Origin: Gracilibacillus suaedae
GTDB taxonomy: Bacteria > Bacillota > Bacilli > Bacillales > Amphibacillaceae
Length of the DNA stretch: 64,000 nucleotides
Direction: 5' to 3'
Assembly: GCF_017599345.1 (NCBI RefSeq)
Contig: NZ_JAGFVL010000020.1
Coordinates: 124,001 to 188,000, forward strand
This document shows, one piece after another, positions 7,121 through 28,248 of this stretch (position 1 is its first letter; each line of letters begins with the position of its first letter). A model generated the notes under the pieces. The model saw only the letters and a program-made list of their open reading frames with translations. It was not told the DNA's origin and searched no databases. Made by a program: the position numbers and the translations under genes.

Positions 7121-7153
7121 AATAGAAGCGGGGATTATCCCCGCTTCTCTATT
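7121..7153. terminator. Strong hairpin between convergent genes, possible bidirectional terminator
   Basis: Perfect stem AGAAGCGGGG / CCCCGCTTCT with a 5-nt loop, extended by AAT/ATT pairs. The stop codon of the DUF2264 gene lies in the loop region. No long T run follows on either strand, so termination is plausible but unproven. Confidence 0.5.
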
Positions 7154-8925
7154 AAATCAGCCAATTTCCACTCTTTGTCTTCTAGATAAATGATCCCGTT
7201 CTCTAATCTTGGCAACTCTGCTTTCGCTTGTGTCGGTGATCCGTAAAAGGCATGCATAAATAGATGAGTTCCCTTGTTTAATGATTTCGTTAGTGTTGGG
7301 ATTACGGTCCGTTTCTGCATCAAATTCGTATTGGCATTTGGAAAAATATGCTTATATTCAGCTCCTCCAGTAAGAGCAAGAGCTGATACTTTGCCATGCT
7401 CTGTTACCACTGCATTTTCATCTAAATCATTTTCGGAATCTGTTAATCCAAGTGCAAAGCCTCCATCAGCTATGTCGAGTGGTCGTTTGGAGGTAATTTC
7501 ATGAATACGTACGTGCCAAGGTAATCCAGGAATGATCCATGTGTGGATGACAACATCTTGCCACGGTGCCCACCTCATATAGATATAATCATTTTCCACC
7601 TTTTTTTCCATGACTTGTCTCTTAACACGATACAAATGATCTTGTTCACTGATTGCTAACATATTATCAAAGGCACCTTGATCCAGTCCCCACTCTCCTC
7701 GCGGTACACTAAAACCAAAATAATTCGAGTAAGCAAACTTCTCATATTTAGCAGAGGTATGAGTATGAGCATTTGTGTGCTTATAACCAGAAGTAAAAGC
7801 TACAACATGTTCGTCATGACGTTTGATTAATAAGGAAGCTTTTGCAAGTCGTTTTGATTTTGGCAGCGAAGGCATTGGCTGCTCATCCACTTGCCAAAAA
7901 GGATGATCCTCAGGCAAAGCTAATAGAAAAAAAGATTTAAATGCCCAATACGGTGAGCCTGGTGCATTATAGTTTTCTGCCATAAAAAGATTTGGATAAT
8001 GATAGCCAATCGATAAAGTACCATCAGGCAGAAAAATATCTTGTTTACACCAGTAGCGAAAATGTCTGAGAATGATTCCTTTGACAGTACCTAAAGGAAT
8101 GTCTTCCAAACCCGCATAGACATAAGCACTCCAGAACGAACATTGGGCAAATCGATAGGTTAGACTACGTCCATATGGAAGTGCCCGTCCATCCTCACTA
8201 AACCAGTGGAGAAAATCCCTTGCGAACAAAATAGCTCTTTCTTTATAGACCTTCGCACGTTCAGGGTCATCTTTTTCCATGACGGTAGCATAGAATAATC
8301 CATAATAATGAAGTGCAAAAGGTGTGTAATAATCGACATGAGCTACTTCGCCATCCTTATACCAACCTTCACCTAAGTAAAAATCATCAATCCTGTTTAA
8401 ATTTTGTTCAATGGTTGTTTGATCGTAAGGTGCTCCAACTTGTTTCAAACCGATGTTCACGATCACTGCGAAAAATAACCAGTTACAATCATGGGCAGCG
8501 TGCTGATTGATTTGAGATAACCAGTTTACCAGATTTTCTTGTTGATCTTCGCTTAATGGTTCCCAAAATTGTTCCGGAGCTAGACACAAGGCATATCCGA
8601 AAGCTGCCATCTCGACAATACGCTGGTCATAGTCATGGATTTCGCCCCAGTAACCTTCACTTTCTCGATTTGTACCATTAATAATTCCTTGCAAATGTTT
8701 CGACCATAAAGCAGTACGGCCACTAGATGCAAGGAAAGGTGCCGCTCCCCATAAAACTCTTGAAAAACATTCAAGTCCCGCTACATTTCCCGAGTAGGCT
8801 GCAGCTGTCTGCCCCACTCTTATCCGTGAGTTTGTTTGATCATAATGTGGCTCAAGCGGTGCCCACATATCTAGTAATACTTTCTCTAAATCTTTTTTCG
8901 AACGTAAAGGATTCTGCTGCAACAT
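7135..8925 (-). CDS. DUF2264 family protein, probable carbohydrate-active enzyme
   Basis: A 596-residue protein without a signal peptide, hence cytoplasmic. It looks like DUF2264 (COG4289): LWAPLEPHYD-type opening, GQTAAAYSGNVAGLECFSRVLWGAAPFLAS, HDCNWLFFAVIVNIGLKQVG and GEWGLDQGAFDNMLAISEQ. Many Trp, Tyr and Phe and helix-rich repeats suggest an (alpha/alpha)6 toroid followed by a beta-rich part. The start is the second of two adjacent ATGs, 6 nt after TAGGAGGA; that ribosome binding site overlaps the stop of the preceding gene. It is the last gene of a long operon with a heparinase II/III-like gene, two-component regulator and sugar importer. From memory, some DUF2264 proteins are assigned to CAZy GH154 (exo-beta-glucuronidases); I could not verify this here. 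Confidence 0.82.
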   Translation of the reverse strand: MLQQNPLRSKKDLEKVLLDMWAPLEPHYDQTNSRIRVGQTAAAYSGNVAGLECFSRVLWGAAPFLASSGRTALWSKHLQGIINGTNRESEGYWGEIHDYDQRIVEMAAFGYALCLAPEQFWEPLSEDQQENLVNWLSQINQHAAHDCNWLFFAVIVNIGLKQVGAPYDQTTIEQNLNRIDDFYLGEGWYKDGEVAHVDYYTPFALHYYGLFYATVMEKDDPERAKVYKERAILFARDFLHWFSEDGRALPYGRSLTYRFAQCSFWSAYVYAGLEDIPLGTVKGIILRHFRYWCKQDIFLPDGTLSIGYHYPNLFMAENYNAPGSPYWAFKSFFLLALPEDHPFWQVDEQPMPSLPKSKRLAKASLLIKRHDEHVVAFTSGYKHTNAHTHTSAKYEKFAYSNYFGFSVPRGEWGLDQGAFDNMLAISEQDHLYRVKRQVMEKKVENDYIYMRWAPWQDVVIHTWIIPGLPWHVRIHEITSKRPLDIADGGFALGLTDSENDLDENAVVTEHGKVSALALTGGAEYKHIFPNANTNLMQKRTVIPTLTKSLNKGTHLFMHAFYGSPTQAKAELPRLENGIIYLEDKEWKLADLIEKRG

Positions 8926-8935
8926 CATGTTCCTC

Positions 8936-10639
8936 CTAAAACTTAAATTCAAATCGAAGTGTAATATCTTTATCTAGGCTGATAACTTCGCATAATATGT
9001 GTAAATAATATTCGATTTTACCCTGATGATTTCGAAAACTTTTCCTTTCCACACTGGATTGTACTTTATCTTTATCAAACGTTATTTCCAATGTTTCCTG
9101 ATCGCCTTTTAAATAAATTCTATCTTCTTGCCGTTCAAAAGGAAGATCCGCTGCAATAAAAGATTCCACCAAAGAAGATGGTTCCCTCTCAAATGCAAAT
9201 TCGTCGCTAACTACTAACTTTGGTCTATCTGATTTATCCCAATTAAACTTGCGAATAAATTGTAGTTGTTCTGTGTATGCATCGCTTAAATCTAATGCAA
9301 GCTCGTCATTACCGCTGCTTTCTCTGATTTGAGTGATTTCACCAGAAAATTGTGCACCTTCTTGTTGATAGACTCCATTAATAACAGGAACGGAATGACC
9401 TGCTGCACTATTGCAGATAAATTGATAGCGTTTATCACTAAAATAATCTTTATGATACTCACCAGATCCTAAATCTCGCAAAAACACATATCCATTACCA
9501 TAAAGGATAAAATGTCCGATATCATTATGGTTGTGTGGTTCGTCATTATGACCAGCCTTGCAAGCAAATGCATATTGGTCGATTCGCGATAAAAAGATAG
9601 AGGCATGTTCCATCAAATAGTTCCCCTGTGGCCATTCCCTTCCTTTGAGATTTGGGTCATACCAGCTTAACTCGCGGATAGCAGGTGCCCACCTGCCACA
9701 ATGATCAACAACATTTGTCAACGCCACACTCTCTTGTGGTACATGTACTTCGGGGAATTTTTTATGCAAAAAATGGCTGAATCCAAGCATCGGAGCAGCA
9801 GTTGGTTCGGCATCTGAGAAGTTGGCTACGTAATTGCCAGCCAAAAATATTTTTTGTTGAAAAGAAGCAATCGCTTTTACTTTGGGACGGGTGAAGAAAT
9901 CTATGTTAAGGAAACGCTCTAATAGATCAGCGAAATAGACAAAATAACCGAAGCCATATTGCCAGTAGCCGTAGCCTTCTGTACAAGCACCGTCATCTTC
10001 AAACCCTGTAAAATAATATTCCATCGTTTGGACCACTCTATTGATTATTTGGCTTTGTCTACGATCACCGTTTAGAATATATAACGCTGCTGCTCCAATA
10101 GATCCACCGCAGACAGATGCCCAATTATGTGTGGCTTTCTCCCAATGAAAGGAACGTTCTAGAAAAGGAGTGAACACCCGGCGATCGATCTCAATTTTCA
10201 TCTTCTCTACTAGAAAATCATCCAGTTGTTCATCAAATAGATCAATAAGCTCGGCTAGTGTAAAAGCTGTCTCTGCCGCAAAAAGGTCAACAGAATATTG
10301 CAATTGATCGGTTTGTCGATATCTTTTATAATCTTGTTCTTCGAATTGTCTGTCTAGGTGTGCAGGCAAACACCACGTAAATTCATTACACACTTGCCAT
10401 ATCTCATTTTCAAACGCAGCTATATACGTTTTCACTTCTGGGTACAGGTAGTGAAGTAAACCAAATGTCGTTAATCTTTTTCGCCGCAGAAAATACTGTG
10501 CTTCGTAACTTTGCCGATCGCCGTTTCGCATAAATTGCCGGTACGTATCAAAATTGATGTTATCTGCTCGCGTGTGCAGAAAATACTCGGCATCTTTCTC
10601 TAGCTGTGCTATAACGCTGTTTCTCCATCCTGTATTCAT
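8936..10639 (-). CDS. Heparinase II/III-like protein (probable polysaccharide lyase)
   Basis: A 567-residue protein without a signal peptide. The N-terminal 300 residues are aromatic-rich and helical, including a segment at about 220-240 dense in Tyr and Gly; the C-terminal half contains the heparinase II/III pattern FACKAGHNDEPHNHNDIGHF and VFLRDLGSGEYHKDYFSDKRYQF, with clustered His and Asp-Tyr residues as in PF07940. Lyases of this fold cleave uronic-acid-containing glycans (heparin, alginate, rhamnosyl-glucuronate) by beta-elimination. A cytoplasmic location suggests it acts on imported oligosaccharides. It overlaps the response regulator gene by 4 bp upstream and is coupled to DUF2264 downstream. 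The exact substrate is not readable from sequence. Confidence 0.82.
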   Translation of the reverse strand: MNTGWRNSVIAQLEKDAEYFLHTRADNINFDTYRQFMRNGDRQSYEAQYFLRRKRLTTFGLLHYLYPEVKTYIAAFENEIWQVCNEFTWCLPAHLDRQFEEQDYKRYRQTDQLQYSVDLFAAETAFTLAELIDLFDEQLDDFLVEKMKIEIDRRVFTPFLERSFHWEKATHNWASVCGGSIGAAALYILNGDRRQSQIINRVVQTMEYYFTGFEDDGACTEGYGYWQYGFGYFVYFADLLERFLNIDFFTRPKVKAIASFQQKIFLAGNYVANFSDAEPTAAPMLGFSHFLHKKFPEVHVPQESVALTNVVDHCGRWAPAIRELSWYDPNLKGREWPQGNYLMEHASIFLSRIDQYAFACKAGHNDEPHNHNDIGHFILYGNGYVFLRDLGSGEYHKDYFSDKRYQFICNSAAGHSVPVINGVYQQEGAQFSGEITQIRESSGNDELALDLSDAYTEQLQFIRKFNWDKSDRPKLVVSDEFAFEREPSSLVESFIAADLPFERQEDRIYLKGDQETLEITFDKDKVQSSVERKSFRNHQGKIEYYLHILCEVISLDKDITLRFEFKF

Positions 10640-12243
10640 TTCACTTTAGCTCCATTCCATTTGCGCCATCTATATTCTAGTGGTGTACACCCTGCCTGTT
10701 TTTTGAAAATTTTAATAAAATAACTTTGATTATCGTAACCGAGTTGTGCACATATTTGTCCAACCGAGTCATTGGTTAATTCCAATAACTCTTTAGCCCT
10801 CTCTACTTTTCTCTGTTTAACATATTCTACAAAAGTAATCTGCATTTCTTTTTTGAAAAGTCTGCTAAAATAACTAGCATTTAAATATAAATATTCTGCC
10901 ACTTCATCTAGGGATAATTTTTTCTCAATATTATCAGCAACATAATAACAAGCATTAACAACATCTTGATGATAGTTGTTTTTTAATTGCTGTGTCGTTT
11001 CTTTTAGGCATTTTTCGGCATAGTTATTCAGCCAGTCGCGCAGTTCATATATCGTATCTAATAGAAAAATCTCTTCCTGTATGGACTCCACATGGTAATT
11101 AGATTGAAAATACGGAATCGTTCGCAATCTTATGTTCAAGTCTAAAATCATTCGGAGAAACCATTCTTTAACAACCTTTGGCTCATACTGCTTTGCAATA
11201 CAAAATTCTATCCATTTGGACAAGTTTTCTTTGAACAACACAAGATCACGTTGGAACATTGCCTTTTTCAATTCGTTTGCCACATCCTGATAATATTGAA
11301 AAATCTCTTGTCCATGATAAGTGGTAGTTATTTCCTCTGCATTCACTATGGTATGGTTACGAGTGAAAAAAATCTGTTTCTCACTATTCACTAAAGAGAT
11401 AATTGCTGATTTTAATAAACTCACATCCGTTTTATTTCCTATCAAGAAGCTTACTTGTATATTTAAAAAATGGTTCAGCGAATGTTGTAACTCTTTCAAT
11501 AAGTCACGTAACTCTCCGAAAATATCATATTTGATGGTTAAGTAATCAGGATAGAAGAGAAAACCTTTATTTTGCTCATAATGAATACATAAAATCTTAT
11601 TCATTTCTTTTTTATTGATTATTTCTCTCATAATGTTATAAATTGCAAATTGTAAGGTATCATCCGAAATAAAGTTTTTCTTCACTTGATAATAATCATT
11701 TACATAAAAATATACAGGAATATATGGCACACTTTGATCGAGCATTACCAATAATTTACTGGAAGAGCCTTGCATGAGCTGTCGCAATAGTTTTTGATTT
11801 TCGATATCATAATTCATTTTCACTTTATGTCTTAATTGTTTTACTTCTATTACTTTGGAAGTATCGTTATCCAATCGCCTTTTACAAGCTATTAAAACCT
11901 CTTCAAGATCTTCTGGATTGAGTGATTCCTTTAATATATAGTCCTGGACATCTAATTTAATCGCTTGCTGAGCATAAGAAAATTCGTTATGACAGGAGAT
12001 GATTGCTACTTGAATATTAGGATTCCATTTTTTCATTTCTTTAGTAAGCTCGATGCCATCCATCTTTGGCATTCCTATATCCGTAATTAAAATATCAGGC
12101 ATGTCTTTTTTCGCATATTGAAAGGCATGTAACCCATTCTCATGTGTACTGCATAATTGTAATCCTAACTTCTCCCAATTAATCGTTTCAGATAAAAACT
12201 CAATTGTTGGATAATCATCATCAACTAACATGACTTTGTACAT
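10636..12243 (-). CDS. YesN-type response regulator with AraC DNA-binding domain
   Basis: A 535-residue protein. The N-terminal receiver has the acidic pair in MLVDDDYP, the phospho-acceptor Asp55 in ILITDIGMPKMDG and a conserved Lys in DYILKES. A middle region of about 250 residues follows. The C-terminus has two AraC helix-turn-helix motifs (LSLDEVAEYLYLNASYFSRLFKK and VGQICAQLGYDNQSYFIKIFKK). ATG 12243 is preferred over GTG 12255 because GGTGGTGAAGG precedes it at a usual distance. It overlaps the kinase gene by 23 bp. In this family the regulator activates the adjacent importer and glycanase genes when the kinase senses sugar. Confidence 0.9.
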   Translation of the reverse strand: MYKVMLVDDDYPTIEFLSETINWEKLGLQLCSTHENGLHAFQYAKKDMPDILITDIGMPKMDGIELTKEMKKWNPNIQVAIISCHNEFSYAQQAIKLDVQDYILKESLNPEDLEEVLIACKRRLDNDTSKVIEVKQLRHKVKMNYDIENQKLLRQLMQGSSSKLLVMLDQSVPYIPVYFYVNDYYQVKKNFISDDTLQFAIYNIMREIINKKEMNKILCIHYEQNKGFLFYPDYLTIKYDIFGELRDLLKELQHSLNHFLNIQVSFLIGNKTDVSLLKSAIISLVNSEKQIFFTRNHTIVNAEEITTTYHGQEIFQYYQDVANELKKAMFQRDLVLFKENLSKWIEFCIAKQYEPKVVKEWFLRMILDLNIRLRTIPYFQSNYHVESIQEEIFLLDTIYELRDWLNNYAEKCLKETTQQLKNNYHQDVVNACYYVADNIEKKLSLDEVAEYLYLNASYFSRLFKKEMQITFVEYVKQRKVERAKELLELTNDSVGQICAQLGYDNQSYFIKIFKKQAGCTPLEYRWRKWNGAKVK

Positions 12244-14041
12244 GACCTTCACCACCTAAAGGAATCTTTATCGTTATCATTGTACCTACCTTCAACTCAC
12301 TATCTATGTTCATTTCTGGACTCACGCGATAAGAAAGCTGCAATCGTTCATATACATTTGCCATACCAATACTCGAAAATCCCGTATTCGAACGTTTTGT
12401 CGTTGTGGATGAACGTAATGCCTGATTCAATTTAGCTAATTGTTGTGGACTAATCCCTACTCCATTATCATGTATGCTAAGTTGAAGCACCTCATCGTTT
12501 ACATCCGCTTTGATGACAATTTGACCGGATCCTTGATTCAGACCATGAATAATTGAATTCTCAATCAAAGGCTGTAATAAAAATCTTGGCACGAGTTGCT
12601 GATAGGCTTTGTCTGTTACATCTACCTCTAATACTACTTTATTTCTCTGTCTCATATTCATTAGATTAACGTAATCTTTCATTAAACTTATTTCATCGAA
12701 TAAGGTGATTTGATCTTCTTTATTATCAATGGTCCAGCGTAACAATTTAGAAAGAGACTGAATCATGCCGGCACTTTCCTTATCACCAAACGTAAAAACT
12801 TTCATGCGAATCGAATTCAACACATTGAACAAAAAGTGTGGATTTATCTGGGCCTGAAGCATTGCCAATTCTGCTTTTCGTTTTCTTTTATGCGTTTGAT
12901 TTACTTCATCAATCATCGTATTGACTCGATCGAGCATATGATTCAACGATTGAGAGAATTGACCAATTTCATCATGACTGTTTACGTTTGCTCGGACACT
13001 CAAATCACCTGTTTGTACCTTCTTCACCACTTTATCCAAATGTCTTAATGGTTTGGTAATTCTGTTCATTAAATATGCTAAGAAAACGAAAAATATTGCA
13101 AAGGAAACAGCTAATAATAAAAATACTTCTGAGAAAATCGAATTAATATTGGAAGTAGCCGCTTTATATGGAATAACGGATACTAATCTCCAATCATTAA
13201 ATGTTAATGATTTATGGGTCATCACGTATTTTTTTCCGTTCCATTCTGCTATTTGCGAACTATCCGTTAAAGGGATATCTGCTAATATGGTTGCTTGTTC
13301 ACCTATCAGTTCGGGATCTTTATGGGATAATATTTGATCTTGGTCATCAATAAGCATGATTTCCTCAGATGGGTTCTGGTTGTTTAAAATATTTCGAATC
13401 TTAGTTTCCAGTAAGGTGACAATGACATATCCATAAATGCTACTGTTACTGTCACGTAACGTTCTGGCAACAGATAGTTGATATGGACTTTGGATTCGTT
13501 CATACGACAGCATCGTTGGTTCCACACCAGACCAGTAAGATTCAAAGCCATTTAATGAACTCAATTCCTGAAACCATTGCTCTTGATAGAATGAATTAGG
13601 ATCAAATTGTCCGGTAGAATAATTCGTATAGTACTGGCCATTTTTCAACAATATCGTTACATAGGATTTTTCGCCTAACAACGTTATATTTTCAATCGTT
13701 TTCCGTACTTGACGGTCTTCTAAATATTCCGTATAACTCTGATTGTCGATTTCATTAAAGGTTAGATTCGATTTATTCTTCAGGATCGTATTCAATTCTG
13801 AATCAATCTGAACAAAGTTAGAAGCATTAATCACATCATCTATTACTCTAGCAACATTTTCTTCGGTTAAATCAAGCTCTTTCTTTGCATTTTGCATTGC
13901 TTGTTCTTCTACTGCATCTCTCGTTAAGTAGCTGTATATTGATAATGTCATTAATACGGGAATCCCAATACATATAAAAGATGCGAGAAATACTTTGGAA
14001 CGAAAAGAAGGAGACGTTAATCTCCGGTAATCAGTCCACAT
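12221..14041 (-). CDS. YesM-type sensor histidine kinase
   Basis: A membrane kinase of about 606 residues. A first helix near residues 15-37, an extracellular sensor of about 260 residues (dCACHE-like, ending YVMTHKSLTFNDWRLVSVIPYK) and a second helix near 300-325 are followed by a HAMP domain (LDKVVKKVQTGDLSVRANV). The phospho-acceptor block is AQINPHFLFNVLNSIRMK and the ATPase domain has LQPLIENSIIHGL and VHDNGVGIS-like (IHDNGVGIS) motifs. Three ATGs in a row follow AGGAGG; the third (14041) has the best spacing. It is the partner of the overlapping response regulator. Confidence 0.9.
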   Translation of the reverse strand: MWTDYRRLTSPSFRSKVFLASFICIGIPVLMTLSIYSYLTRDAVEEQAMQNAKKELDLTEENVARVIDDVINASNFVQIDSELNTILKNKSNLTFNEIDNQSYTEYLEDRQVRKTIENITLLGEKSYVTILLKNGQYYTNYSTGQFDPNSFYQEQWFQELSSLNGFESYWSGVEPTMLSYERIQSPYQLSVARTLRDSNSSIYGYVIVTLLETKIRNILNNQNPSEEIMLIDDQDQILSHKDPELIGEQATILADIPLTDSSQIAEWNGKKYVMTHKSLTFNDWRLVSVIPYKAATSNINSIFSEVFLLLAVSFAIFFVFLAYLMNRITKPLRHLDKVVKKVQTGDLSVRANVNSHDEIGQFSQSLNHMLDRVNTMIDEVNQTHKRKRKAELAMLQAQINPHFLFNVLNSIRMKVFTFGDKESAGMIQSLSKLLRWTIDNKEDQITLFDEISLMKDYVNLMNMRQRNKVVLEVDVTDKAYQQLVPRFLLQPLIENSIIHGLNQGSGQIVIKADVNDEVLQLSIHDNGVGISPQQLAKLNQALRSSTTTKRSNTGFSSIGMANVYERLQLSYRVSPEMNIDSELKVGTMITIKIPLGGEGHVQSHVS

Positions 14042-14103
14042 CATCATCCTCCTCTAATACAAGAATGTCAGGGGACAACGGAATCAACGTCCCTTACTTT
14101 AAT

Positions 14104-14117
14104 TGTAAACGCTTTAA
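14104..14117. promoter_or_regulatory. cre-like site upstream of the kinase gene
   Basis: TGTAAACGCTTTAA differs at one position from the CcpA consensus TGWNANCGNTNWCA. It lies between the binding-protein stop and the kinase start, so CcpA may repress or attenuate the distal half of the operon. Confidence 0.4.
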
Positions 14118-15537: not shown

Positions 15538-15560
15538 TTTCATACCCCCTGTAATTTTAT

Positions 15561-15574
15561 TGAAAACCCTTACA
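15561..15574. promoter_or_regulatory. cre-like sequence before the binding-protein gene
   Basis: TGAAAACCCTTACA matches the CcpA consensus except that the central CG is CC. It lies 24 bp upstream of the start codon in the gap after the permease gene. Confidence 0.3.
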
Positions 15575-15645
15575 CTATTGATGCTAACAAAATACTCTTC
15601 AGCATACATATCACTATTTTTACCTCTGACAACACTTTTTTTACT

Positions 15646-19112: not shown

Positions 19113-19114
19113 CG

Positions 19115-22100
19115 TTATGATATTGATTTTCTTCGTATGATCCATACACTGATTCCGACAACTAATAGTAAAATACCTACCAATAGAATGTTGAATTGAT
19201 TCGTTGCCGTATCCGGTAAATCATTTTTTTCCTTTTGCTGCACTTTCTTTTCTTCCCCAGCAATTCCCGACTCCGTTTCTTCAGAAGCATTCGCTAATAC
19301 AGCATAACTTGAGAAATGAGAAACATCTATGGTTAATGTTTGGTTTTCGCCATATTTTGCAGTTTGGGCCATCCATTGATCATTTTCTTCCTGGTAATAA
19401 TATATATCTTTTTCACCTTGAACCTCTTCTTCATAACCTAATGAAAGAGTATAAGGTTCTGAAGGCTGCTCGGATCCTTCTGGAAAATCAAATGTAAACG
19501 TAAAACTGTCTCCAGCAAGCGTTAATCCTTGATGATCTGTATCCTCGATCGATTTCTCTGATACAGCAAGCTTTGTATCAGGCGGTAAGTCACCAGGCAT
19601 TTTAATTGTACTTCTTGTACCTTTGATTTGATAGAGTTGATTCGCTTCCACCTCAAGAAATTGTAAGTCGTTAATAGTACTAATCGGAAGCTCATTTTCA
19701 CTATGCCCAGGAGATTGCTCATCCTCAGTTTCATTTGGGCTTTCTTCATCTGTTCCTTCTTCATTCTCAGGTTCTTCTTCATTTATTAGTTTCTCCATGA
19801 AATCAATTGTATAAGTGTTACTTTGCTCCTCGTTTTCCGCTGTTACTGTAACTTTTGCTTCCCCTGGCAATGACTCTGGAAGTTCGATTTCGTAGGTTGC
19901 AAATAAATCATTTGTTTCCACTTCAACAGCCGGAATATCTGATCCTTTTTCCATTTCCACTTCATAACGGAAATTATCAGCCTTGAAATTTTCTAATACT
20001 CTATGATTAATCCAAATATTTTTCAGTGTCGCATCTTCACCAATTACTGGTGTTTCTCCGAATCCATATACTTCGATTTCTACAATAGCAATACACGTAT
20101 CTGGCATAGCTGTTAATTGCGTTCTAACTTTGTCAGTTGTAATTGCGTCGAAAGCAATGTTTATTTCATCTTCGGCATCTACTTCTACATCTGAATTGTC
20201 TATTTTAACCCAGTCCGACCCATTCCAATACTCTAAAAATAAAGATTCTGGAGGTCTTGTTCCACCTTGGTCATCATAAAATGTAAATTTAACTTCAGAA
20301 ATCTCCCGTTCTTGGCCAAAATCAATTTCAACCCAATCTGTCTCCCGCCATTCATTCGGATCCCAGTTAGTCCAGCGATTACTGGAATAATCCCCGTCAT
20401 TTACTCGATTAACATCATCCCATTGACCAGTGAAGGAAGCTGTTGCTTTTGGATATTCAGCATTTGTATTGCTTAGCGCAAGATTTTCAAGCACACTTTC
20501 TGCTACTTGCACAAGTGCAACGGCTTTATCACCTGTCCCTTCTACTTGGCCATTAACCTTAAACTGACCATACGTTGCATAATCGGAAGTTTCTACTTCA
20601 TCCCAATTGACAGGCACTTTGATTTCTCTACCACTTGACAACTCTGCTGTTACTGTATTTGGTAGTTCAGGTGCCATACCTTTTACCGTCTTTACCTTTG
20701 TATCTGTTAATTGAACAATCTCACCTACATATACTACTGCCTCTGCTTTTAATGATGTTTGCTCCACAGTGCCCTCTACTACAAAATCCCCTTCTTTATC
20801 GTATTGTTCAGGAGAAATATCGTCCCATATAACCTCTACTTCCCGTTTTTCACCGTCACCATATTTAGCAGTGACTGTATCTGGTAGTGAAGGCGCATTT
20901 CCAATAGTAGTCCAGGTTGTAACATTATCAATAGTTGTTATACCAGCTTCTACTATTGCCCATTGTTGATTCGTTCCTGCATTAGCCTGCCAAACTCCGA
21001 CTGTAGCACCTTCTTCAGTCGATTGGCCACCTACCTCTAATAAGGTACCACTTTCTTTATTGATCAATGTATAGTCACCATTACCAGAGGTAGAAATGAT
21101 CCATTTTTGCGCGTCAATACGTTGATAAGGTGACAAGATCACATCTCCATCCTGATGTGTCAGTACTTCATTTGTTTCTGCGTTAATTATTTGATATTCT
21201 TCTTTATTTGTGTAGCCATCTGTCACTTTCTTAAATTTCCATTCCTGACTTGTATTTTCACGTTCTGCTGTATATTGAACAAGGGATTGATCATTTAAAT
21301 CAAGTACTTTTTCACTATTTTGATTTTCTATTTTATATGTCTTATTCTCTTGAAAGAAGGCATCCTCTTCATCTACACCAGCTACACCTGAGATCACAAA
21401 TGTTGTAACTGATTTCGGTTCTACCGCAGTTGTCAGACTCTTTTCCTCTATGTTAATGGTTTCGCCCTCAGCAAGATTATGCTCTGCTGAAGTAACATGC
21501 GTTGATGCGGTAGCAGATTGATCTACTGCTCCGAAACCAGATAAATCAATATCAATGGATTTCTCTGATGCTGACGTATTCGTATAAACAACAACGGCCT
21601 CGTTATCTGCTTTATTAATGGCAGCTAGTGTATTTTCATTATCAGAGTTAATCATTCGGAATCCCGGACGAATGAATTTCGTATAGTTTGCCATGGTGTA
21701 ATATTTTTTGTTCTTGTGCCATTTTAGTTCCTCAAAGTTCTCTGGATCAAAGTCAACATGGATTAGTCCCCAGTTCATATTCTCATTTTCTGCATTCATA
21801 TTAACTTGATCTTCAATTGCTTGCCAAAGTACCCAGGCTTTCGGTTCAAGACTCATAATATCTGATGTGATTCGTTCTGATAGAGCTAAGCCTGGTTCTA
21901 TATTGTCAAAATCCTGAGGAATGCCACTTGGACCTAAGTCTACTTCTGACATCCATAATCGTTTGTTTTCTCCCTTAGCAATATCTCTAATAGGAGTTCG
22001 TTCACTCGGCCCGTACGTATGTACATTCATTTGGCCAATGTTATTTATAGTGTCTTGTCTGTATTGATACCAATTCTCCCTAAATTTAGTTGGATTTGTT

Positions 22101-22954
22101 TCATCCATTGCTGAGACTACGGTTTTTAAATTTAGTGCTTCTAATTCTGTACTTACCTCTTCTATAATTCTAGCTTGTGATGCAGGATCCCAATGTGAAC
22201 CTTCCTGTCTACCTTGTGCTCCCCAATAATTTGTATTAGGTTCATTTACAGGAGACAAAGTTTGAAATGAGATACCTTTTTCTTCTGCAAAATATTCTAC
22301 CACTCTCGTAAGATATGTGGCGAAGTTCTCATATTGATCCTCTTGTAAATTATCTTCAGCTGAATTCCAATTACCAGAAGTATATCCACTGTTTGTCATA
22401 AAATATGGTGGTGAATTCGAAAATGCTTCAAATAAATTGGCTCCTCTTTGTTTAGCGGCTTCTAACCACCATTGCTGATTTTTATCCTTGTCCCAATCCC
22501 AATGGTTAGGATTATCTGGATCCCACCAGTCCTCTTGCTCTTCCCAATCTTCATCTGCATCATCTGGTGGACCAAATTCATCTGGACGATTCCAATAGCC
22601 TGGAACTGCCCCTCCAAGACGCATGTATGGTTCGGTCTCTGGCGAATCTTCGCCTCCGATATTATATCTAGCAATATTTAAATTCAAGCCACTTACTCCA
22701 AAAAGCTCATCAGCTAACTCATTCTTAACCTCCTCTGGCCATCCACCTGTGACATTCGCAAACCAAACTAATGCTGTTCCCCAACCATCAAAGGAAGAAT
22801 GTTGATAACTTGGATCTAACTTTATGATAGTATCGCTGCTATCTTCTGTATTATTAGCTGAATATTGTGCATGTGTAGAAACAGGACTAAGTGTAGTTAC
22901 CAAAAGTAAAATAATACTCCCTATTAAGGCTAGCTTCCTTATCGACTGCTTCAA
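19115..22954 (-). CDS. Wall-anchored multidomain GH30 glycanase with lectin and CBM-like modules
   Basis: A 1279-residue secreted protein. Order: signal peptide 1-29; GH30 catalytic domain about 45-540 with likely acid/base Glu238 (PVNEPNTNYWG) and nucleophile Glu337 (LWMSEVDLGPSG); ricin-type beta-trefoil about 550-690 (NQQWAIVEAG); two Ig-like repeats (each ending with an ALVQV- or VVYVG-like strand) about 695-850; discoidin/CBM32-like domain about 855-990; a cadherin-like beta-sandwich from about 1000; an acidic Glu/Pro linker; and a C-terminal sorting signal LPDTA (1246-1250), hydrophobic helix and RRKS tail. The start is TTG after GAGAGGATG. The sequence around FDGWGTALVWFANVTGG recalls GH30 endo-beta-1,6-galactanases, but other GH30 activities are possible. 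It is monocistronic, with a cre site upstream. Confidence 0.88.
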   Translation of the reverse strand: MKQSIRKLALIGSIILLLVTTLSPVSTHAQYSANNTEDSSDTIIKLDPSYQHSSFDGWGTALVWFANVTGGWPEEVKNELADELFGVSGLNLNIARYNIGGEDSPETEPYMRLGGAVPGYWNRPDEFGPPDDADEDWEEQEDWWDPDNPNHWDWDKDKNQQWWLEAAKQRGANLFEAFSNSPPYFMTNSGYTSGNWNSAEDNLQEDQYENFATYLTRVVEYFAEEKGISFQTLSPVNEPNTNYWGAQGRQEGSHWDPASQARIIEEVSTELEALNLKTVVSAMDETNPTKFRENWYQYRQDTINNIGQMNVHTYGPSERTPIRDIAKGENKRLWMSEVDLGPSGIPQDFDNIEPGLALSERITSDIMSLEPKAWVLWQAIEDQVNMNAENENMNWGLIHVDFDPENFEELKWHKNKKYYTMANYTKFIRPGFRMINSDNENTLAAINKADNEAVVVYTNTSASEKSIDIDLSGFGAVDQSATASTHVTSAEHNLAEGETINIEEKSLTTAVEPKSVTTFVISGVAGVDEEDAFFQENKTYKIENQNSEKVLDLNDQSLVQYTAERENTSQEWKFKKVTDGYTNKEEYQIINAETNEVLTHQDGDVILSPYQRIDAQKWIISTSGNGDYTLINKESGTLLEVGGQSTEEGATVGVWQANAGTNQQWAIVEAGITTIDNVTTWTTIGNAPSLPDTVTAKYGDGEKREVEVIWDDISPEQYDKEGDFVVEGTVEQTSLKAEAVVYVGEIVQLTDTKVKTVKGMAPELPNTVTAELSSGREIKVPVNWDEVETSDYATYGQFKVNGQVEGTGDKAVALVQVAESVLENLALSNTNAEYPKATASFTGQWDDVNRVNDGDYSSNRWTNWDPNEWRETDWVEIDFGQEREISEVKFTFYDDQGGTRPPESLFLEYWNGSDWVKIDNSDVEVDAEDEINIAFDAITTDKVRTQLTAMPDTCIAIVEIEVYGFGETPVIGEDATLKNIWINHRVLENFKADNFRYEVEMEKGSDIPAVEVETNDLFATYEIELPESLPGEAKVTVTAENEEQSNTYTIDFMEKLINEEEPENEEGTDEESPNETEDEQSPGHSENELPISTINDLQFLEVEANQLYQIKGTRSTIKMPGDLPPDTKLAVSEKSIEDTDHQGLTLAGDSFTFTFDFPEGSEQPSEPYTLSLGYEEEVQGEKDIYYYQEENDQWMAQTAKYGENQTLTIDVSHFSSYAVLANASEETESGIAGEEKKVQQKEKNDLPDTATNQFNILLVGILLLVVGISVWIIRRKSIS

Positions 22955-23045: not shown

Positions 23046-23059
23046 AGTAAACGTTTACA
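23046..23059. promoter_or_regulatory. cre-like palindrome upstream of the GH30 gene
   Basis: AGTAAACGTTTACA (reverse TGTAAACGTTTACT) is a near-perfect inverted repeat that fits the CcpA consensus except for one end base; a LacI-family operator is an alternative. It lies 92 bp before the GH30 start. Confidence 0.5.
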
Positions 23060-23319: not shown

Positions 23320-26300
23320 CTACTCTTTTATTTCACTTGGTACATTTTCAAGTAATGTATCATATTCTTCCTGTGTAATTGGTAAAACGGTGCCGTGACG
23401 TGGATGACTAGGTAAATCGTAATCTTCGGCTACTGTCCATTCCCCGGAAGCTAAATCGGTTGTTTCAAAAGGTACATAGCCTTGGCCACCAAACTCGTCA
23501 ATAAATAAGTACCATTTTTCTTCTGTATTGGACTTAAATATTGCTGGTCCTTCCCCTTGGCTAATCGTTCCTTTACCAATTCCTTCTGTAATCATTTCAA
23601 AATCAGGGTCAAGTACAGAATCTCCTACCTCTTGGAAAATAAATTTACCATTTGGTGACGTTTCTTCATTGTTTACTCGTTCATCCTTCGTGAAACGATA
23701 AATCTTGTCATCATGTTCTACCATGGTTGTATCAATAATCGAGTAACCATAATCCAAGTAAACCTCAGGTTCACTAAAAGTATGGAAGTCTCTTGTTGTT
23801 GTATACATCATACGTTGATAACTATCTCCTGAGTTTCTATCTTCTTCATTGTCATACAGTTTCGATGCCCAGAATACGACATACTTACCGATCGTATCAT
23901 CATAAAAGATCTCTGGAGCCCATGTATTTCCTGCCTCCTCAGGCGCTACCTCTACTAATCGTTGTTCGGACCAATTCACCAGATCAGTCGACTCCCAAAC
24001 CATGATTGACCTGCTTCCTTCTGTTTGCGCTCTATTCCAATCCCAATTACCATTGATTTTTAAATCAGTCGCAATCATGTAAAATTTATCGCCTTCTGGA
24101 GAACGAATAATAAACGGATCTCTTAAACCTTTTTCACCTAATTTAGATGTGATGACGGGTTCTCCATCATTAAGCTGTTGCCAGTGAAGAGGATCATTTC
24201 CTTCACTCAAGGCAAAATATATTTGTTCACCATTTTCGGAACCTTCACCAGTAAAATAACTAAACAAATATCCTTGATAATCGAGCGGTTCCGGCATTTC
24301 TTTTACATTCGCCACAAATTCTTTGGTTGCTTTCTTACCATTGAGTGCTACAGTTGCTGCTAATGTTATTTCTACGTCGCCTTCGCCATGTTCAGGGCGT
24401 GTCACTTCACCTGTTGTCGTGATAACCGATGGATTTTCTGACACCCAAGAGATCGTTGTTTCGTGCTCTCCTTCGGTTGGTAATGACAAATTACCACGAA
24501 CATCATCAATATTATAAACCTTTAACGCCTCTACTGCTTCTTTCACTAAATCTTTATCTTTGTTCTTGTCTTTTTTACTTTTGTCTTTCTCCTTATCTTT
24601 ATTTTTGTTCTTATCTTTTTTACTTTTGTCCTTCTTTTTTTCTTTATCCTTATTTTTTTCTGCTGGACTAGCACCTGTAATAATATCGATTCCATCTAGC
24701 ACATAGTTACCAGCTTTCACTACTATTTTAGCTGTATGCTTCTGCTTTTTCAGACCTCGAATGTGATAAGAGGTTTGTCTGTCTCCTCTTGGATATACTC
24801 GATAGTCCTCCTCCACTAATTGATCATCAATATACACATCTATTAATGCGTCAGATGTTGCACCAAATAGATTAAAGCCATTTCCTTTAAAATCAAAGAG
24901 TATCATATCTTCACTTTCTTCAGGTGTACTGTAAATGTTGACACCGCGATAATCCATATATTGTTCTTTTACTTCATTGTCACCTAAAGAAACTTTTAAC
25001 GTATGGGCTTTATCTTCTAATCCTCTGACTGAATATCTGATACCGTCATCCTCTACGTCAAAATTACCGACACTTTCACCATCCAATTCCACATGGTAAG
25101 TGGTTTCATTTTCTGCACCTGCAAGATAATCAATTCCCGTACCTGTGAAGTTGATGAAGATATAAGGATTATCATTAAAGTCAGCCCAAGCATTGGTGCT
25201 GTTAGCTCCCCAGGTATTGCCATTCTCACGGTATGCATACACTGTATTTTCCTCATTTCCAATTTCTGAATCATCAGCTATTGCGGTAAAGTCATTGGGA
25301 GCTAATGTTGTTACTGCTTCAAAGTCAATCGGATCATTTGTCTCTATTTCAGCTCGAACAAAACTTGTATAAGCTTCTTTAGCAACCACTTTCAATGTGT
25401 GCTCAGTTTCTTCCAGATCTGTCGCTTCCCAAACCTTTTTTACGATCGAACTATTATTCAAATAATCAGCTTCACCGACAAGTTCACCGTCTAAATAAAT
25501 ATCTGCCGTACCATTCGACGGATTTGCTTCACCATACAATCGGATAGCATTTCCTTTAAAGGTAATTTCATAAGAATCACCCTCATTTCCCCAAGCATTA
25601 CCACTATTGGAGCCCCAATCTCCTGAATAGTAAACCTTGTTTAATGTTCCTTGCTGATTGGTAGTATCTGTATGCTCCACAGTAATGCCATTCCAAACCG
25701 GATAGTCACTTGATGCGCTCATTTGTGTACGATTATAGTGTCCATATCCAGCCTGGATAAATTCCCAGTCACCAACATATCCAATTGGGTTCCATTGATC
25801 ATCGTTTTCTAATGCCTCTTCCTCTGTGTCGTAAATTTCACCTTGCGCATTATCCAGTTTCCATGATTCATATGCATAACCCTTAATTGGCTCAATTTTC
25901 AAATTATCGATAAGTGTTTCGTAATAGCCTGAGCCTAATGTCACTCTACCAGACATGACAGTTGAATCCTCATCCGTGTAAGAGGCTATTTCTTCATCAT
26001 CAAGATAAAGGGTAAAGATATTTCCTTTTGCTTCAAATGCTAAGTTGTGCCATCTAGTATTATCAAACGATTCTATTGTTCCTTCTTCAACCACATCACC
26101 AAGTTTCAAAATCTCGTACTTTCCATCCTTGTAGATCCGGGCATTATAAGGTGCCTGAGAATCAGACCAGTCAGATTTTACTTGGCGAACACCGATTAAA
26201 GCATAATTCTCTCTGCCTTCTGCTTCTGGAGTATGCGTATCTAATAAAAAGTCATATGATACTTTATAATTTGCCCAGCGGAAATCTCCGATATTGGTGT

Positions 26301-28248
26301 TAGGATTAACATTTGCTTCAGATCCGTCTGTTCCACCCCAAACAGCCCAATCTGCTCCGATAATATCTGGCGTGATTTTTTGTTGCAGCATACTGCCGTG
26401 TTCTTCTGCGTCCGGGATTTCGCGTTCTGTTCTTTCAAAGCTGCCACTTCCCACTGGTTTTGTTGCTTCTTTCACTACCTCAAAAGCCCCGATTTGATCT
26501 GTTGTATACCTTGGTGTACCTCCACGTCGTTCTATATAGTCTCTTCCTTGTTCATCTTCAGGATATTCATCATACTCAAAATCATCTGTATATGGTAAAG
26601 GCATAATCGTATCTTCTGATAAATCTACCGGATCTGATTGATAAGCAAAATCATCGATTTTCGCTTCTTTATCTAACGTAGAAATGGTCACGATCGAATA
26701 GGGTTTTACCTCAATCTCATACGTTCCATCTTCCGGTTGAATCGTTTCTATATGTTGAAACCAATTTTCATCATAATCTTGTCCTTCTTCAGGCCCACGA
26801 GTCTCCCAAACAAATACTTCTGCATCCTCTTTTCCATCCAAGTTTTCTAAATCAATCGTATATTTACGTGTATCTTTCGTGTTGTTGGCAAATACAGTAG
26901 TGTAATCGTCTGTTTTCGGATCTTTCAATGTCATATAATTATGTGTACTGGTATCTACATCTACTCCTCCGTCAAAGAAATTACCATCACTGTAGGTGGC
27001 ATTCTTTATATATTGCCATCTTTCATTTTCCTTTGTGGAAGGATCATCATAACCAACAAAATTCATGACATGTCTGACACCCTGAAGACCACCATCTACT
27101 TCATAAAAACCTGACCAAGGATCAAATGCACTAATTAAATGCTTCGGATTGTATTGTGCACCTTGGTAAAAAGCAGCAACAGATGGCTGAAAATCAAATG
27201 AAACTGCATTTAATGGCAGATTACCTGCTCCTTCCCACGAATAGACAGAAATGATTCGTGATGTCACATCAATAATACCAGCACGTCCACCAAGGCCATT
27301 GTAATGTGGTTCCATGTTCTCACGATATCTAGCATTAATCATGGGTGCGATCCCTTCTGAAACCCAAACCTCTTTTGGTTCTTTATCTTCTGCAATTAAT
27401 TGGTCTTGTAATTCTGAAAGTTCATTAGAACCTGTCAGACCATAATGAGAACTGATCACACCAATTTCTTCGATCAAGTCTGGGTTATCTAATAACGTAC
27501 GACTAATTGTCTCGGTATCCCGATATCCATCAGCAGCAACTAGCTTTATATCTTGATAATCTTCTTCATAATTGGGTTCTTCCTTTATTCTTGAAGTAAA
27601 ATACTCAAGCCATTCTACATCAATTCTCCCATTACCATTTTGTGCTCTCTCGTTTTGCGATATGCCGATATAATCTAATTGGAAGCCATACTCTTCATTA
27701 ACAGCATCGATCGTTTGTTTGTACCACTGATAGCGATTTTCATAATCTTGATCAGCCGCACCATTCCAAGTCCAGCGAGGTTCACCCCATCGTAAAATCT
27801 CGGTTGTGATTGCTGGATTAATAGATTTCGCGTCAGCAGCAAATTGAAAGCCTGCACCTCTTAATACGTTGGCAGGTTCATCTTTGTAACGCATTGTTGC
27901 TGGTTCAGTACCAGAGGAAGAATTGATATCTCCACCTAATTCTACTTTTACATGAGTTAATCCTGCTCCTGTCTCTTTATTAAATAGTTGATTCATAATC
28001 TCCCAATACTTTTCAGGGTGCTCTTCTTTGTAATCGAGTAATAAGCGAGATGTATTATTGCCTGATACCGTACCAAAACCTTTAAAGCGATTGTGTTCAT
28101 CAACATCGTTACCATCGATCGTTATCGTTTTTGTTATTTCTTCTGCTTGCGACTGATTAATTCCGATAATTGTGCCAAGTCCTAACAAAGTCAGTGTTAT
28201 CGCTAAAAGAACGATAAATTGTTTAAAAGAACTGCTTTTACCTGTCAT
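23320..28248 (-). CDS. Secreted GH59-GH43 fusion enzyme with Lys-rich linker
   Basis: A 1642-residue secreted protein from ATG 28248 (GGTGGTAAAC precedes). Order: signal peptide about 1-35 ending near SQAEE; GH59 (galactocerebrosidase-like) domain about 40-540, recognised by FKGFGTVSGNNTSRLLLDY, VKVELGGDINSSSGTEP, IGISQNERAQNG (likely acid/base Glu200), EVWVSEG (likely nucleophile Glu298) and DPWSGFYEVDGGLQG; a concanavalin/lectin-like domain about 590-790; three beta-sandwich repeats containing DGELVG- or DGESVG-like turns to about 1185; a 40-residue Lys/Asp/Asn linker about 1194-1234; an Ig-like domain; and a GH43 beta-propeller about 1319-1642 (LRDPFIIRSPEG, NTWAPEIFYDD, GEGPAIFKS). GH59 members known to me are galactosidases. 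There is no sorting signal, so the protein is probably released or held by binding modules. Confidence 0.85.
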   Translation of the reverse strand: MTGKSSSFKQFIVLLAITLTLLGLGTIIGINQSQAEEITKTITIDGNDVDEHNRFKGFGTVSGNNTSRLLLDYKEEHPEKYWEIMNQLFNKETGAGLTHVKVELGGDINSSSGTEPATMRYKDEPANVLRGAGFQFAADAKSINPAITTEILRWGEPRWTWNGAADQDYENRYQWYKQTIDAVNEEYGFQLDYIGISQNERAQNGNGRIDVEWLEYFTSRIKEEPNYEEDYQDIKLVAADGYRDTETISRTLLDNPDLIEEIGVISSHYGLTGSNELSELQDQLIAEDKEPKEVWVSEGIAPMINARYRENMEPHYNGLGGRAGIIDVTSRIISVYSWEGAGNLPLNAVSFDFQPSVAAFYQGAQYNPKHLISAFDPWSGFYEVDGGLQGVRHVMNFVGYDDPSTKENERWQYIKNATYSDGNFFDGGVDVDTSTHNYMTLKDPKTDDYTTVFANNTKDTRKYTIDLENLDGKEDAEVFVWETRGPEEGQDYDENWFQHIETIQPEDGTYEIEVKPYSIVTISTLDKEAKIDDFAYQSDPVDLSEDTIMPLPYTDDFEYDEYPEDEQGRDYIERRGGTPRYTTDQIGAFEVVKEATKPVGSGSFERTEREIPDAEEHGSMLQQKITPDIIGADWAVWGGTDGSEANVNPNTNIGDFRWANYKVSYDFLLDTHTPEAEGRENYALIGVRQVKSDWSDSQAPYNARIYKDGKYEILKLGDVVEEGTIESFDNTRWHNLAFEAKGNIFTLYLDDEEIASYTDEDSTVMSGRVTLGSGYYETLIDNLKIEPIKGYAYESWKLDNAQGEIYDTEEEALENDDQWNPIGYVGDWEFIQAGYGHYNRTQMSASSDYPVWNGITVEHTDTTNQQGTLNKVYYSGDWGSNSGNAWGNEGDSYEITFKGNAIRLYGEANPSNGTADIYLDGELVGEADYLNNSSIVKKVWEATDLEETEHTLKVVAKEAYTSFVRAEIETNDPIDFEAVTTLAPNDFTAIADDSEIGNEENTVYAYRENGNTWGANSTNAWADFNDNPYIFINFTGTGIDYLAGAENETTYHVELDGESVGNFDVEDDGIRYSVRGLEDKAHTLKVSLGDNEVKEQYMDYRGVNIYSTPEESEDMILFDFKGNGFNLFGATSDALIDVYIDDQLVEEDYRVYPRGDRQTSYHIRGLKKQKHTAKIVVKAGNYVLDGIDIITGASPAEKNKDKEKKKDKSKKDKNKNKDKEKDKSKKDKNKDKDLVKEAVEALKVYNIDDVRGNLSLPTEGEHETTISWVSENPSVITTTGEVTRPEHGEGDVEITLAATVALNGKKATKEFVANVKEMPEPLDYQGYLFSYFTGEGSENGEQIYFALSEGNDPLHWQQLNDGEPVITSKLGEKGLRDPFIIRSPEGDKFYMIATDLKINGNWDWNRAQTEGSRSIMVWESTDLVNWSEQRLVEVAPEEAGNTWAPEIFYDDTIGKYVVFWASKLYDNEEDRNSGDSYQRMMYTTTRDFHTFSEPEVYLDYGYSIIDTTMVEHDDKIYRFTKDERVNNEETSPNGKFIFQEVGDSVLDPDFEMITEGIGKGTISQGEGPAIFKSNTEEKWYLFIDEFGGQGYVPFETTDLASGEWTVAEDYDLPSHPRHGTVLPITQEEYDTLLENVPSEIKE

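What the first reader, a model, noticed from the sequence alone, without database searches (positions are those of the whole stretch)
7135..28248. Possible Gram-positive system for a glucuronate-decorated galactan such as type II arabinogalactan
Seen: a wall-anchored GH30 protein, a secreted GH59-GH43 fusion and, beyond a repeat-rich kilobase, an operon of CUT1 importer, YesMN pair, cytoplasmic heparinase II/III-like protein and DUF2264 protein. All are on the minus strand and four have cre-like sites. Known: GH30 includes beta-1,6-galactanases, GH43 includes beta-1,3-galactosidases, known GH59 members are galactosidases, and arabinogalactans carry glucuronic acid and rhamnose caps that lyases or glucuronidases remove. 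Inference: extracellular galactan cutting followed by import and intracellular removal of uronate. I know of no described Bacillaceae locus with this combination.
Basis: partly seen in the sequence, partly recalled or inferred. Interest (0 to 1): 0.8.

Follow-up and report, generated by a model that had tools for sequence, protein, structure and literature searches.

The report
Arabinogalactan-and-glucuronate locus in Gracilibacillus
A bacterium of the Gracilibacillus group carries genes that most likely let it cut the galactose side chains of plant arabinogalactan outside the cell, import the pieces and work on their acidic sugar inside, with a pair of enzymes that is common in related bacteria but that our paper searches did not turn up for them.

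Summary
Minus strand, 18145 to 7135: one operon for DUF624, CUT1 permeases, binding protein, YesMN, a cytoplasmic PL33-like lyase (HEP) and a two-domain DUF2264 protein; upstream, a wall-anchored GH30 and a secreted GH59-GH43. Cre-like sites precede operon, yesM, GH30 and GH59.

The families favour a beta-1,6-galactan bearing arabinose and glucuronate. GH30 is nearest a GH30_5 endo-beta-1,6-galactanase; GH43 resembles GH43_22 alpha-arabinofuranosidases; HEP keeps the PL33 catalytic residues; DUF2264 is GH154, re-described in 2025 as a glucuronate dehydratase, and keeps 9 of 10 tested residues.

Strong GH59 matches occur in 14 of 159 family genomes; all 14 carry HEP, 11 within 31 kb. Of 73 named HEP loci outside the genus, 47 also hold GH88 unsaturated glucuronyl hydrolase, 31 both GH88 and two-domain DUF2264. 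That fits lyase and dehydratase converging on one product.

The twist: GH88 was found in none of 17 genomes of the window's genus, so the last step there is missing or different. The substrate is untested. New variant of a known kind.

The parts
7135..8952 (-). two-domain DUF2264 protein (GH154 family), predicted uronate dehydratase, probably cytoplasmic
   Evidence: PF10022 1.8e-129 and DUF2264_C 9.5e-38; PDB 8oi4/9o4u/9nwf 1e-26 to 1e-28; 9 of 10 tested BcGDH residues kept; AF2 pLDDT 82.6, Foldseek best GH154 8oi4
8936..10639 (-). PL33-like lyase ('HEP'), probably cytoplasmic
   Evidence: PDB 8r75/8r6z (PL33) 8e-34; catalytic residues kept; AF2 pLDDT 94.1, Foldseek best 8r70 PL33, TM 0.80
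10636..12255 (-). YesN-type response regulator
12221..14047 (-). YesM-type sensor kinase with dCache and HAMP
14104..14117 (-). cre-like site ahead of yesM
   Evidence: one mismatch
14134..15609 (-). CUT1 solute-binding protein
   Evidence: SBP_bac_1 2.1e-23
15646..16485 (-). MalG-type permease
16504..17454 (-). MalF-type permease
17435..18145 (-). DUF624 membrane protein, first gene of the operon; likelier start is the ATG at 18103 behind GGAAAGGGGG
   Evidence: sequence
18131..18144 (-). cre-like site overlapping a promoter-like site (18156-18129) ahead of the operon
19115..22954 (-). wall-anchored GH30 (GH30_5-like, predicted endo-beta-1,6-galactanase) with ricin-type, Big_4 and F5/8-type modules and LPxTATN anchor
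   Evidence: PDB 24td 4.8e-43; E238 and E337 match catalytic E217 and E320; anchor
23046..23059 (-). cre-like site ahead of GH30
23320..28260 (-). secreted GH59 - aBig_2 - GH43_22-like fusion (predicted beta-galactosidase plus alpha-L-arabinofuranosidase)
   Evidence: PF02057 1.1e-75; NCBIfam BAD_1527 1.7e-67; NER motif aligned with galactocerebrosidase
28354..28367 (-). cre-like site ahead of GH59

Best explanation
[quoted passage not shown] Outside: the wall-anchored GH30 cuts beta-1,6-galactan, the GH43_22-like domain removes alpha-arabinofuranose, GH59 trims galactose (inferred from family). The CUT1 importer, controlled by YesMN and cre sites, takes up short acidic galacto-oligosaccharides such as Rha-a1,4-GlcA-b1,6-Gal-b1,6-Gal (inferred). 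Inside, two enzymes attack the terminal glucuronate by the same chemistry: HEP, a PL33-like lyase, eliminates whatever sits on O4 (rhamnose; perhaps methyl), and DUF2264, a GH154-type dehydratase, eliminates water from a bare O4. Both would give the same 4,5-unsaturated glucuronyl-galactose, which GH88 hydrolyses in relatives that have it (47 of 73 named loci outside the genus); GH35 or LacZ beta-galactosidases stand nearby in some. In the window's genus no GH88 was found, so another enzyme must release the uronate, or DUF2264 works differently there. Shown: gene content, residue conservation, predicted folds, linkage. Inferred: substrate, order of steps, all activities.
For: GH30 nearest to GH30_5, catalytic Glu pair kept. 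HEP has the PL33 fold and catalytic residues, with Val at the W242 position that PMC11848413 gives for PL33_2, the mostly Bacillota subfamily. DUF2264; PMC12269599 shows two GH154 members, one of them BT_3677, to be dehydratases, and that GH88 cuts the product of the other. Linkage: strong GH59 matches (E below 1e-70, my threshold) in 14 of 159 family genomes, all 14 with HEP; 9 of the other 145 have HEP; same contig 5-31 kb apart in 11 of 14. GH88 within 10 kb of HEP in 47 of 73 named loci outside the genus, 31 with two-domain DUF2264, which stands without GH88 in 5; p = 0.0002, and on the HEP tree 6.5 against 0.7 of 14 independent pairs, median p 0.07. GH35 in 5 and LacZ-type GH2 in 2 family loci. 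The tetrasaccharide above is the reported limit product of B. longum on gum arabic (PMC8939339, abstract and passages).
Against: No PF07470 protein (GH88; GH105 also falls there, recalled) in the window genome, and no GH88-profile match in 17 of 17 genomes of its genus. Five genomes with intact two-domain DUF2264 lack PF07470 over its cut-off and any PF04962 (KduI) match. Characterised PL33 enzymes act on GAGs and gellan (PMC11848413), and lyase + GH88 + GH154 in B. caccae acts on chondroitin (PMC12269599). GH59 lies within 10 kb of HEP in 13 of 80 named loci, LacZ in 6, GH35 in 0, and GH59 does not vary together with DUF2264 on the tree. GH30 is missing from the closest relative's locus, G028, and seen in 7 of 23 HEP loci. 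Four of 11 GH30_5 residues differ. GH59 also sits in a xylan gene cluster of Ruminiclostridium, with a CBM6 that binds xylose (PMC6556953). BAD_1527 itself does not act on larch arabinogalactan (PMC11264647).
Confidence: 0.57

Rival explanations
1. The importer/HEP/DUF2264 operon serves a different glucuronate polymer (glycosaminoglycan, gellan- or xanthan-like exopolysaccharide) and GH30/GH59 are separate neighbours.
For: Characterised PL33 enzymes cut hyaluronan, chondroitin, heparosan and gellan (PMC11848413); lyase + GH88 + GH154 is the chondroitin set of B. caccae (PMC12269599); the GH88 partner is closest to Bacillus sp. GL1 UGL, 1vd5, 6e-136 (source organism recalled); 67 of 80 named HEP loci have no GH59 within 10 kb.
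Against: 14 of 14 strong-GH59 genomes in the family carry HEP, 11 on the same contig 5-31 kb away; the window's type of binding protein and YesM accompany 11 of the 13 named GH59 loci; none of the 39 window proteins scanned with Pfam is a secreted polysaccharide lyase; HEP lacks W224 and L174 of the BtPL33 platform.
Confidence: 0.2
2. In Gracilibacillus the two-domain DUF2264 does not feed GH88 as a dehydratase but itself frees the uronate (a true beta-1,6-glucuronidase, as first reported for BT_3677) or runs as a hydratase that turns HEP's unsaturated product back to glucuronate for another glucuronidase and UxaC.
For: No GH88/GH105 found in the genome; canonical beta-glucuronidase over cut-off in 0 of 12 HEP genomes with intact two-domain DUF2264 against 5 of 11 without, p = 0.014; UxaC in 23 of 23 HEP genomes against 54 of 136 others; no PF04962 match in 5 of the 12; the dehydratase reaction of the unrelated P29_PDnc could be reversed (PMC8511951).
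Against: Few independent events: on the tree 0 pairs go the same way, 1.6 the other way, 2.4 do not differ (made with the earlier labels); the beta-glucuronidase genes are not beside HEP (70, 72 and 219 kb away, or on other contigs); 9 of 10 dehydratase residues kept and PMC12269599 sees no hydrolase geometry in the family; other isomerases for the keto product exist (recalled) and were not searched.
Confidence: 0.2
3. A xylan or pectin system: GH30 a xylanase, GH43 an arabinoxylan or arabinan enzyme, GH59 a side-chain galactosidase of xylan.
For: GH30's beta-sandwich also matches the XynC model (4e-17, far below cut-off); BAD_1527 works on arabinoxylan and arabinan, not larch arabinogalactan (PMC11264647); a GH59 protein lies in the arabinoxylan cluster of Ruminiclostridium and its CBM6 binds xylose (PMC6556953 passages).
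Against: GH30_5 match 150 bits against 58.7 or less for AcXbh30A and the xylanase entries; lyase and dehydratase chemistry suits terminal or 4-substituted glucuronate; GH35 and LacZ neighbours in some relatives are galactosidase families.
Confidence: 0.1

Closest known systems
Bacteroides arabinogalactan-protein PULs (GH154 BT_3677, GH145 and PL27 rhamnose-glucuronate lyases, GH105)
   Same: Rhamnose-glucuronate caps removed by a lyase, the unsaturated uronate then hydrolysed (PMC8406133 and PMC8377490 passages); GH154 (PMC12269599; its place in the arabinogalactan PUL is recalled).
   Different: GH145 is a beta-propeller; PL27 has a beta-sandwich followed by an (alpha/alpha)6 barrel, and its relation to PL33 was not tested; GH105 in place of GH88; here CUT1 import and YesMN, enzymes probably cytoplasmic.
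B. caccae PUL25 (PL35 + GH88 + GH154 dehydratase)
   Same: Lyase, GH88 and GH154 working together; all three kinds lie together in 31 of 73 named HEP loci outside the window's genus.
   Different: Chondroitin, PL35, a GH154 without the second domain; in the window itself GH88 is missing.
Bifidobacterium longum gum arabic AGP cluster
   Same: Gram-positive, surface-anchored GH43_22 enzymes acting on arabinogalactan side chains (PMC8939339 passages); a GH30 beta-1,6-galactan enzyme (recalled).
   Different: The Rha-GlcA-Gal-Gal tetrasaccharide is left over; GH59 and GH154 have 0 occurrences in that paper's main text.
Ulvan dehydratase pathway (P29_PDnc + GH105)
   Same: Dehydration of a saturated terminal uronate to feed an unsaturated uronyl hydrolase (PMC8511951 passages).
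   Different: Unrelated sequence (PMC12269599), other substrate.
GH59 proteins of other Bacillota (Paenibacillus sp. JDR-2 SLH-anchored GH59; Ruminiclostridium GH59-1238)
   Same: Secreted modular GH59 (PMC4765114 and PMC6556953 passages).
   Different: Named as a list entry or set in a xylan cluster; no HEP/DUF2264 link is mentioned in the passages seen (GH88: 0 occurrences in PMC4765114).

Membership tests
PL33 | Catalytic N238, Y291, H444 (BtPL33HA) | tested here: met
   N172, Y225, H369; invariant in 38 aligned HEP sequences
PL33 | R103, H154, W239, Y470, F475 | tested here: met
   R42, H94, W173, Y395, F400
PL33 | Platform residues L174, W224, W242 (not all family-defining: Val replaces W242 in PL33_2) | tested here: inconclusive
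   Y115, gap, V176
PL33 | (alpha/alpha)6 toroid plus antiparallel beta-sheet fold | tested here: met
   Foldseek best ten all PL33, TM 0.79-0.83
PL33 | Zn site; lyase activity; CAZy family model | not testable with these tools
   no CAZy models or assays; identity about 18%, so a sister family is possible
GH154 (uronate dehydratase) | PF10022 and the ten mutated active-site residues of BcGDH | tested here: met
   9 of 10 kept, N176 is Cys; the related 8oi4 has Thr there
GH154 (uronate dehydratase) | Dehydratase rather than hydrolase activity | not testable with these tools
   needs purified enzyme
GH30_5 | Closest solved relative is GH30_5; catalytic Glu pair | tested here: met
   24td 4.8e-43 against 3clw (GH30_4) 1e-24; E238, E337
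GH30_5 | Other substrate-site residues of Sa16Gal30A | tested here: inconclusive
   N216, Q229, Y294, W350, W359 kept; K114, W222, D354, P355 changed; no subfamily tree made
GH43_22 | Match to a characterised GH43_22 model | tested here: inconclusive
   228 bits over the whole domain, below equivalog cut-off 500; no subfamily tree made
GH59 | Pfam GH59 and acid/base Glu | tested here: met
   255 bits; NER aligned with galactocerebrosidase NER (its catalytic role recalled); nucleophile not mapped
Lyase + GH88 + GH154 module | GH88 present | tested here: not met
   not found in own genome or in any of 17 of the genus; present in 47 of 73 other named loci
Type II arabinogalactan utilisation system | Growth on, or induction by, arabinogalactan | not testable with these tools
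   bench work

The most novel reading that the evidence does not exclude
Gracilibacillus is a natural GH88-less version of a lyase + GH88 + GH154 module, in which the two-domain GH154 protein has taken over uronate release, as a genuine beta-1,6-glucuronidase or as a hydratase that hands saturated glucuronate back; and a cytoplasmic PL33-like enzyme is a new rhamnose-glucuronate (or methanol-eliminating) lyase of arabinogalactan.
Probability: 0.2. Interest if true: 0.75.

Novelty: new variant of a known kind. Interest (0 to 1): 0.52.

Why it matters
If true it gives Bacillota a route for acidic arabinogalactan side chains, including the Rha-GlcA-Gal-Gal tetrasaccharide that bifidobacteria leave behind, and extends PL33-like lyases from polymers to intracellular oligosaccharides. 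It also offers a natural test of an open dispute, whether GH154 is a glucuronidase or a dehydratase: a genus that keeps GH154 but seems to have lost the GH88 needed to use a dehydratase's product.

Tried and rejected
GH43 as exo-beta-1,3-galactanase: the domain alone gave no PDB match below E 0.02 and best fits the GH43_22 model. GH88/GH105 hidden in the own genome: searched with PF07470 and with a ten-sequence GH88 profile, none at 1e-3. A negative association of DUF2264 with PF07470 genes, suspected midway, did not hold (p = 0.20). Beta-glucuronidase and intact DUF2264 excluding each other: p = 0.0037 at first, 0.014 once genomes with interrupted DUF2264 frames (G014, G025; G034 was already counted so) were moved, and untestable on the tree (earlier labels). 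GH59 and two-domain DUF2264 do not change together on the HEP tree (2.1 against 2.1 of 10 pairs). PF04962 covers KduI and, as recalled, IolB: the own genome has two such genes and I did not settle which is KduI; one search counted only the weaker-scoring class. UxaC serves galacturonate too. Both are weak markers. G031 has a weak PF07470 match (362 aa, 1.7e-5, over the cut-off only with its neighbours in the frame) that I did not count. Promoter scan no better than shuffles (57 against 59.1). One search counts 80 loci, 79 with a called HEP frame; flanks cut by contig ends can hide genes. Of 44 HEP genomes outside the family I fetched 30 loci; 8 of the 30 hold no GH88.
Full report
What is there. 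The window is G000:C17:124001-188000 of a 4.65-Mb genome. Named near relatives of the lyase are Gracilibacillus species, for example G. orientalis at 75%, so the window belongs to that genus or very near it. On the minus strand, reading from 18145 to 7135, eight overlapping or closely spaced genes look like one operon: DUF624, MalF, MalG, binding protein, YesM, YesN, HEP, DUF2264. No ATPase is in it; CUT1 importers commonly share one (recalled). About 1 kb upstream lies GH30, then the GH59-GH43 fusion. Cre-like sites stand before the operon, yesM, GH30 and GH59. From 31 to 60 kb follows a separate set of beta-mannan genes.

Outside the cell. GH30 carries a sorting signal above its curated cut-off. 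Its catalytic part is nearest Sa16Gal30A, an endo-beta-1,6-galactanase of GH30_5 (24td, 4.8e-43), ahead of 3clw of GH30_4 (1e-24) and of AcXbh30A and the xylanases (2e-15 or weaker). Both catalytic glutamates and five of nine further residues named in PMC13431644 (passages read) are kept; K114, W222, D354 and P355 differ. GH59 is certain as a family and its NER motif aligns with that of galactocerebrosidase. The C-terminal domain looks like an alpha-arabinofuranosidase of GH43_22 type, a subfamily active on arabinogalactan, arabinan or arabinoxylan (PMC11264647, PMC8939339, passages), not a beta-1,3-galactosidase. Against this, BAD_1527 itself spares larch arabinogalactan, and a GH59 of Ruminiclostridium lies in a xylan cluster (PMC6556953 passages).

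Inside the cell. HEP matches PL33 over 490 residues (8e-34). R103, H154, N238, W239, Y291, H444, Y470 and F475 of BtPL33HA are all kept; W242 is Val, which PMC11848413 states for PL33_2; W224 and L174 are not kept (of that paper I read the outline with abstract, part of the results, and sections 8, 11 and 17). The model (pLDDT 94.1) finds PL33 first, TM about 0.8 at 18% identity. DUF2264 is GH154. PMC12269599 (abstract, passages and the structure section read) shows that a GH154 protein of B. caccae, and BT_3677, dehydrate glucuronate, and that GH88 removes the unsaturated sugar made by the first. Nine of its ten mutated active-site residues are kept here. The model is weaker (pLDDT 82.6) and finds GH154 first.

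Relatives in the family. Of 159 family genomes 23 have HEP. GH59 matches (38 of 159) fall into two groups, E below 1e-70 in 14 genomes and above 1e-25 in the rest; only the first group is counted as GH59 here. All 14 carry HEP, against 9 of 145 others. In 11 the two lie on one contig 5 to 31 kb apart; in G027 each sits near a contig end, in G014 and G035 they are on different contigs. These genomes are related, so the 14 are not independent. GH30 lies in 7 of the 23 fetched HEP loci and not in that of the closest relative, G028. A GH35 with a LacI regulator sits between in 5 genomes (one of the five scanned with Pfam) and LacZ-type GH2 near HEP in 2.

The wider module. In the class, 48 of 398 sampled genomes have HEP. 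Of the 44 outside the family I fetched 30 loci; 22 of the 30 hold a GH88 gene in the stretch, 16 a two-domain DUF2264, 15 both. A profile of ten such GH88 genes finds unsaturated glucuronyl hydrolase 1vd5 at 6e-136 and keeps Asp88 and Asp149 invariant (that these are the catalytic pair is recalled). In 80 named loci, the best 80 of 579 or more relatives, GH88 lies within 10 kb of HEP in 47, two-domain DUF2264 in 38, GH59 in 13, the window's type of binding protein in 40, LacZ in 6, GH35 in 0. Outside Gracilibacillus (73 loci) the split is both 31, GH88 only 16, DUF2264 only 5, neither 21, p = 0.0002; on the HEP tree 6.5 pairs agree, 0.7 disagree and 6.9 do not differ, median p 0.07. So DUF2264 and GH88 tend to go together, as the dehydratase reading predicts, and HEP often shares the place with GH88.

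The gap. The window genome has no PF07470 protein and the GH88 profile finds nothing in any of 17 genomes of the genus. In a set of 28 HEP carriers outside the family, all 28 have a PF07470 match and 27 over the cut-off; the window genome, the 29th, has none. Eight of 12 family genomes with intact two-domain DUF2264 lack PF07470 over the cut-off, five of these also lack any PF04962 match (G031's weak match not counted). Canonical beta-glucuronidase is over its cut-off in 5 of 11 HEP genomes without an intact two-domain DUF2264 and in 0 of 12 with it (p = 0.014), too few events for a tree test and not beside HEP (distances for the three on one contig). UxaC is in 23 of 23 HEP genomes against 54 of 136 others; the own genome has UxaC and UxaE on contig C59 and PF04962 genes on C14 and C59. 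How the uronate is finally released in this genus is unexplained.

Reading. The simplest account is a type II arabinogalactan side-chain system in which a lyase handles 4-substituted and a dehydratase bare glucuronate, converging on one unsaturated product. The same outcome by other families is known in Bacteroides (GH145 lyase plus GH105, PMC8406133 passages). The Rha-GlcA-Gal-Gal tetrasaccharide that B. longum leaves from gum arabic (PMC8939339) is the natural candidate substrate. A glycosaminoglycan or exopolysaccharide target remains possible because characterised PL33 enzymes work on those. Full-text searches (only open-licence papers are held): DUF2264, none; GH59 with GH30, GH43 and arabinogalactan, 7 papers, of which I searched two for these terms; GH154, 30 of 37 listed; arabinogalactan with unsaturated glucuronyl hydrolase, galactanase and GH30, 1; type II arabinogalactan with Bacillus, Paenibacillus and related terms, 15 of 24 listed; BT3677/PL27/GH145, 7. 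No listed title or abstract start describes this combination in Bacillota.

Noticed in passing
window 31098-60704: Beta-mannan gene set: two GH113, GH2 mannosidase-type, GH26-CBM35, GH130, GlcNAc_2-epim, AXE1 and GDSL esterases, GH1, two CUT1 importers, a second YesMN pair and a chemoreceptor; GH36 begins at 62918.
   Followed up: no
window 18146-19114: Intergenic kilobase built largely of dispersed repeats, also at own contigs C3 (L130 14311-14698, 86-94%), C59 (L133, L134) and C17 flanks (L042, L044, L045).
   Followed up: partly
window 29679-29897: Tandem array of 4.3 copies of a 51-bp unit; a related array (about 69%) lies at L133 4303-4733 on contig C59.
   Followed up: partly
L134 (G000:C59:309604-310678): A DUF2264 gene lies in three pieces in different frames; an intact single-domain copy on C36 lies among importer genes and a 2-hydroxyacid dehydrogenase.
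   Followed up: partly
L148 / L035 (Aquibacillus salsiterrae): In the HEP operon the two-domain DUF2264 is replaced by Gfo/Idh/MocA, AP_endonuc_2, single-domain DUF2264 and 2-hydroxyacid dehydrogenase genes, perhaps a redox route to the same end.
   Followed up: no
L043 1851-4265 (about 18 kb left of the window): An 804-aa protein with CBM6 and CBM4_9 that scores about equally on the GH59 and one GH30 model (66 and 65 bits).
   Followed up: partly
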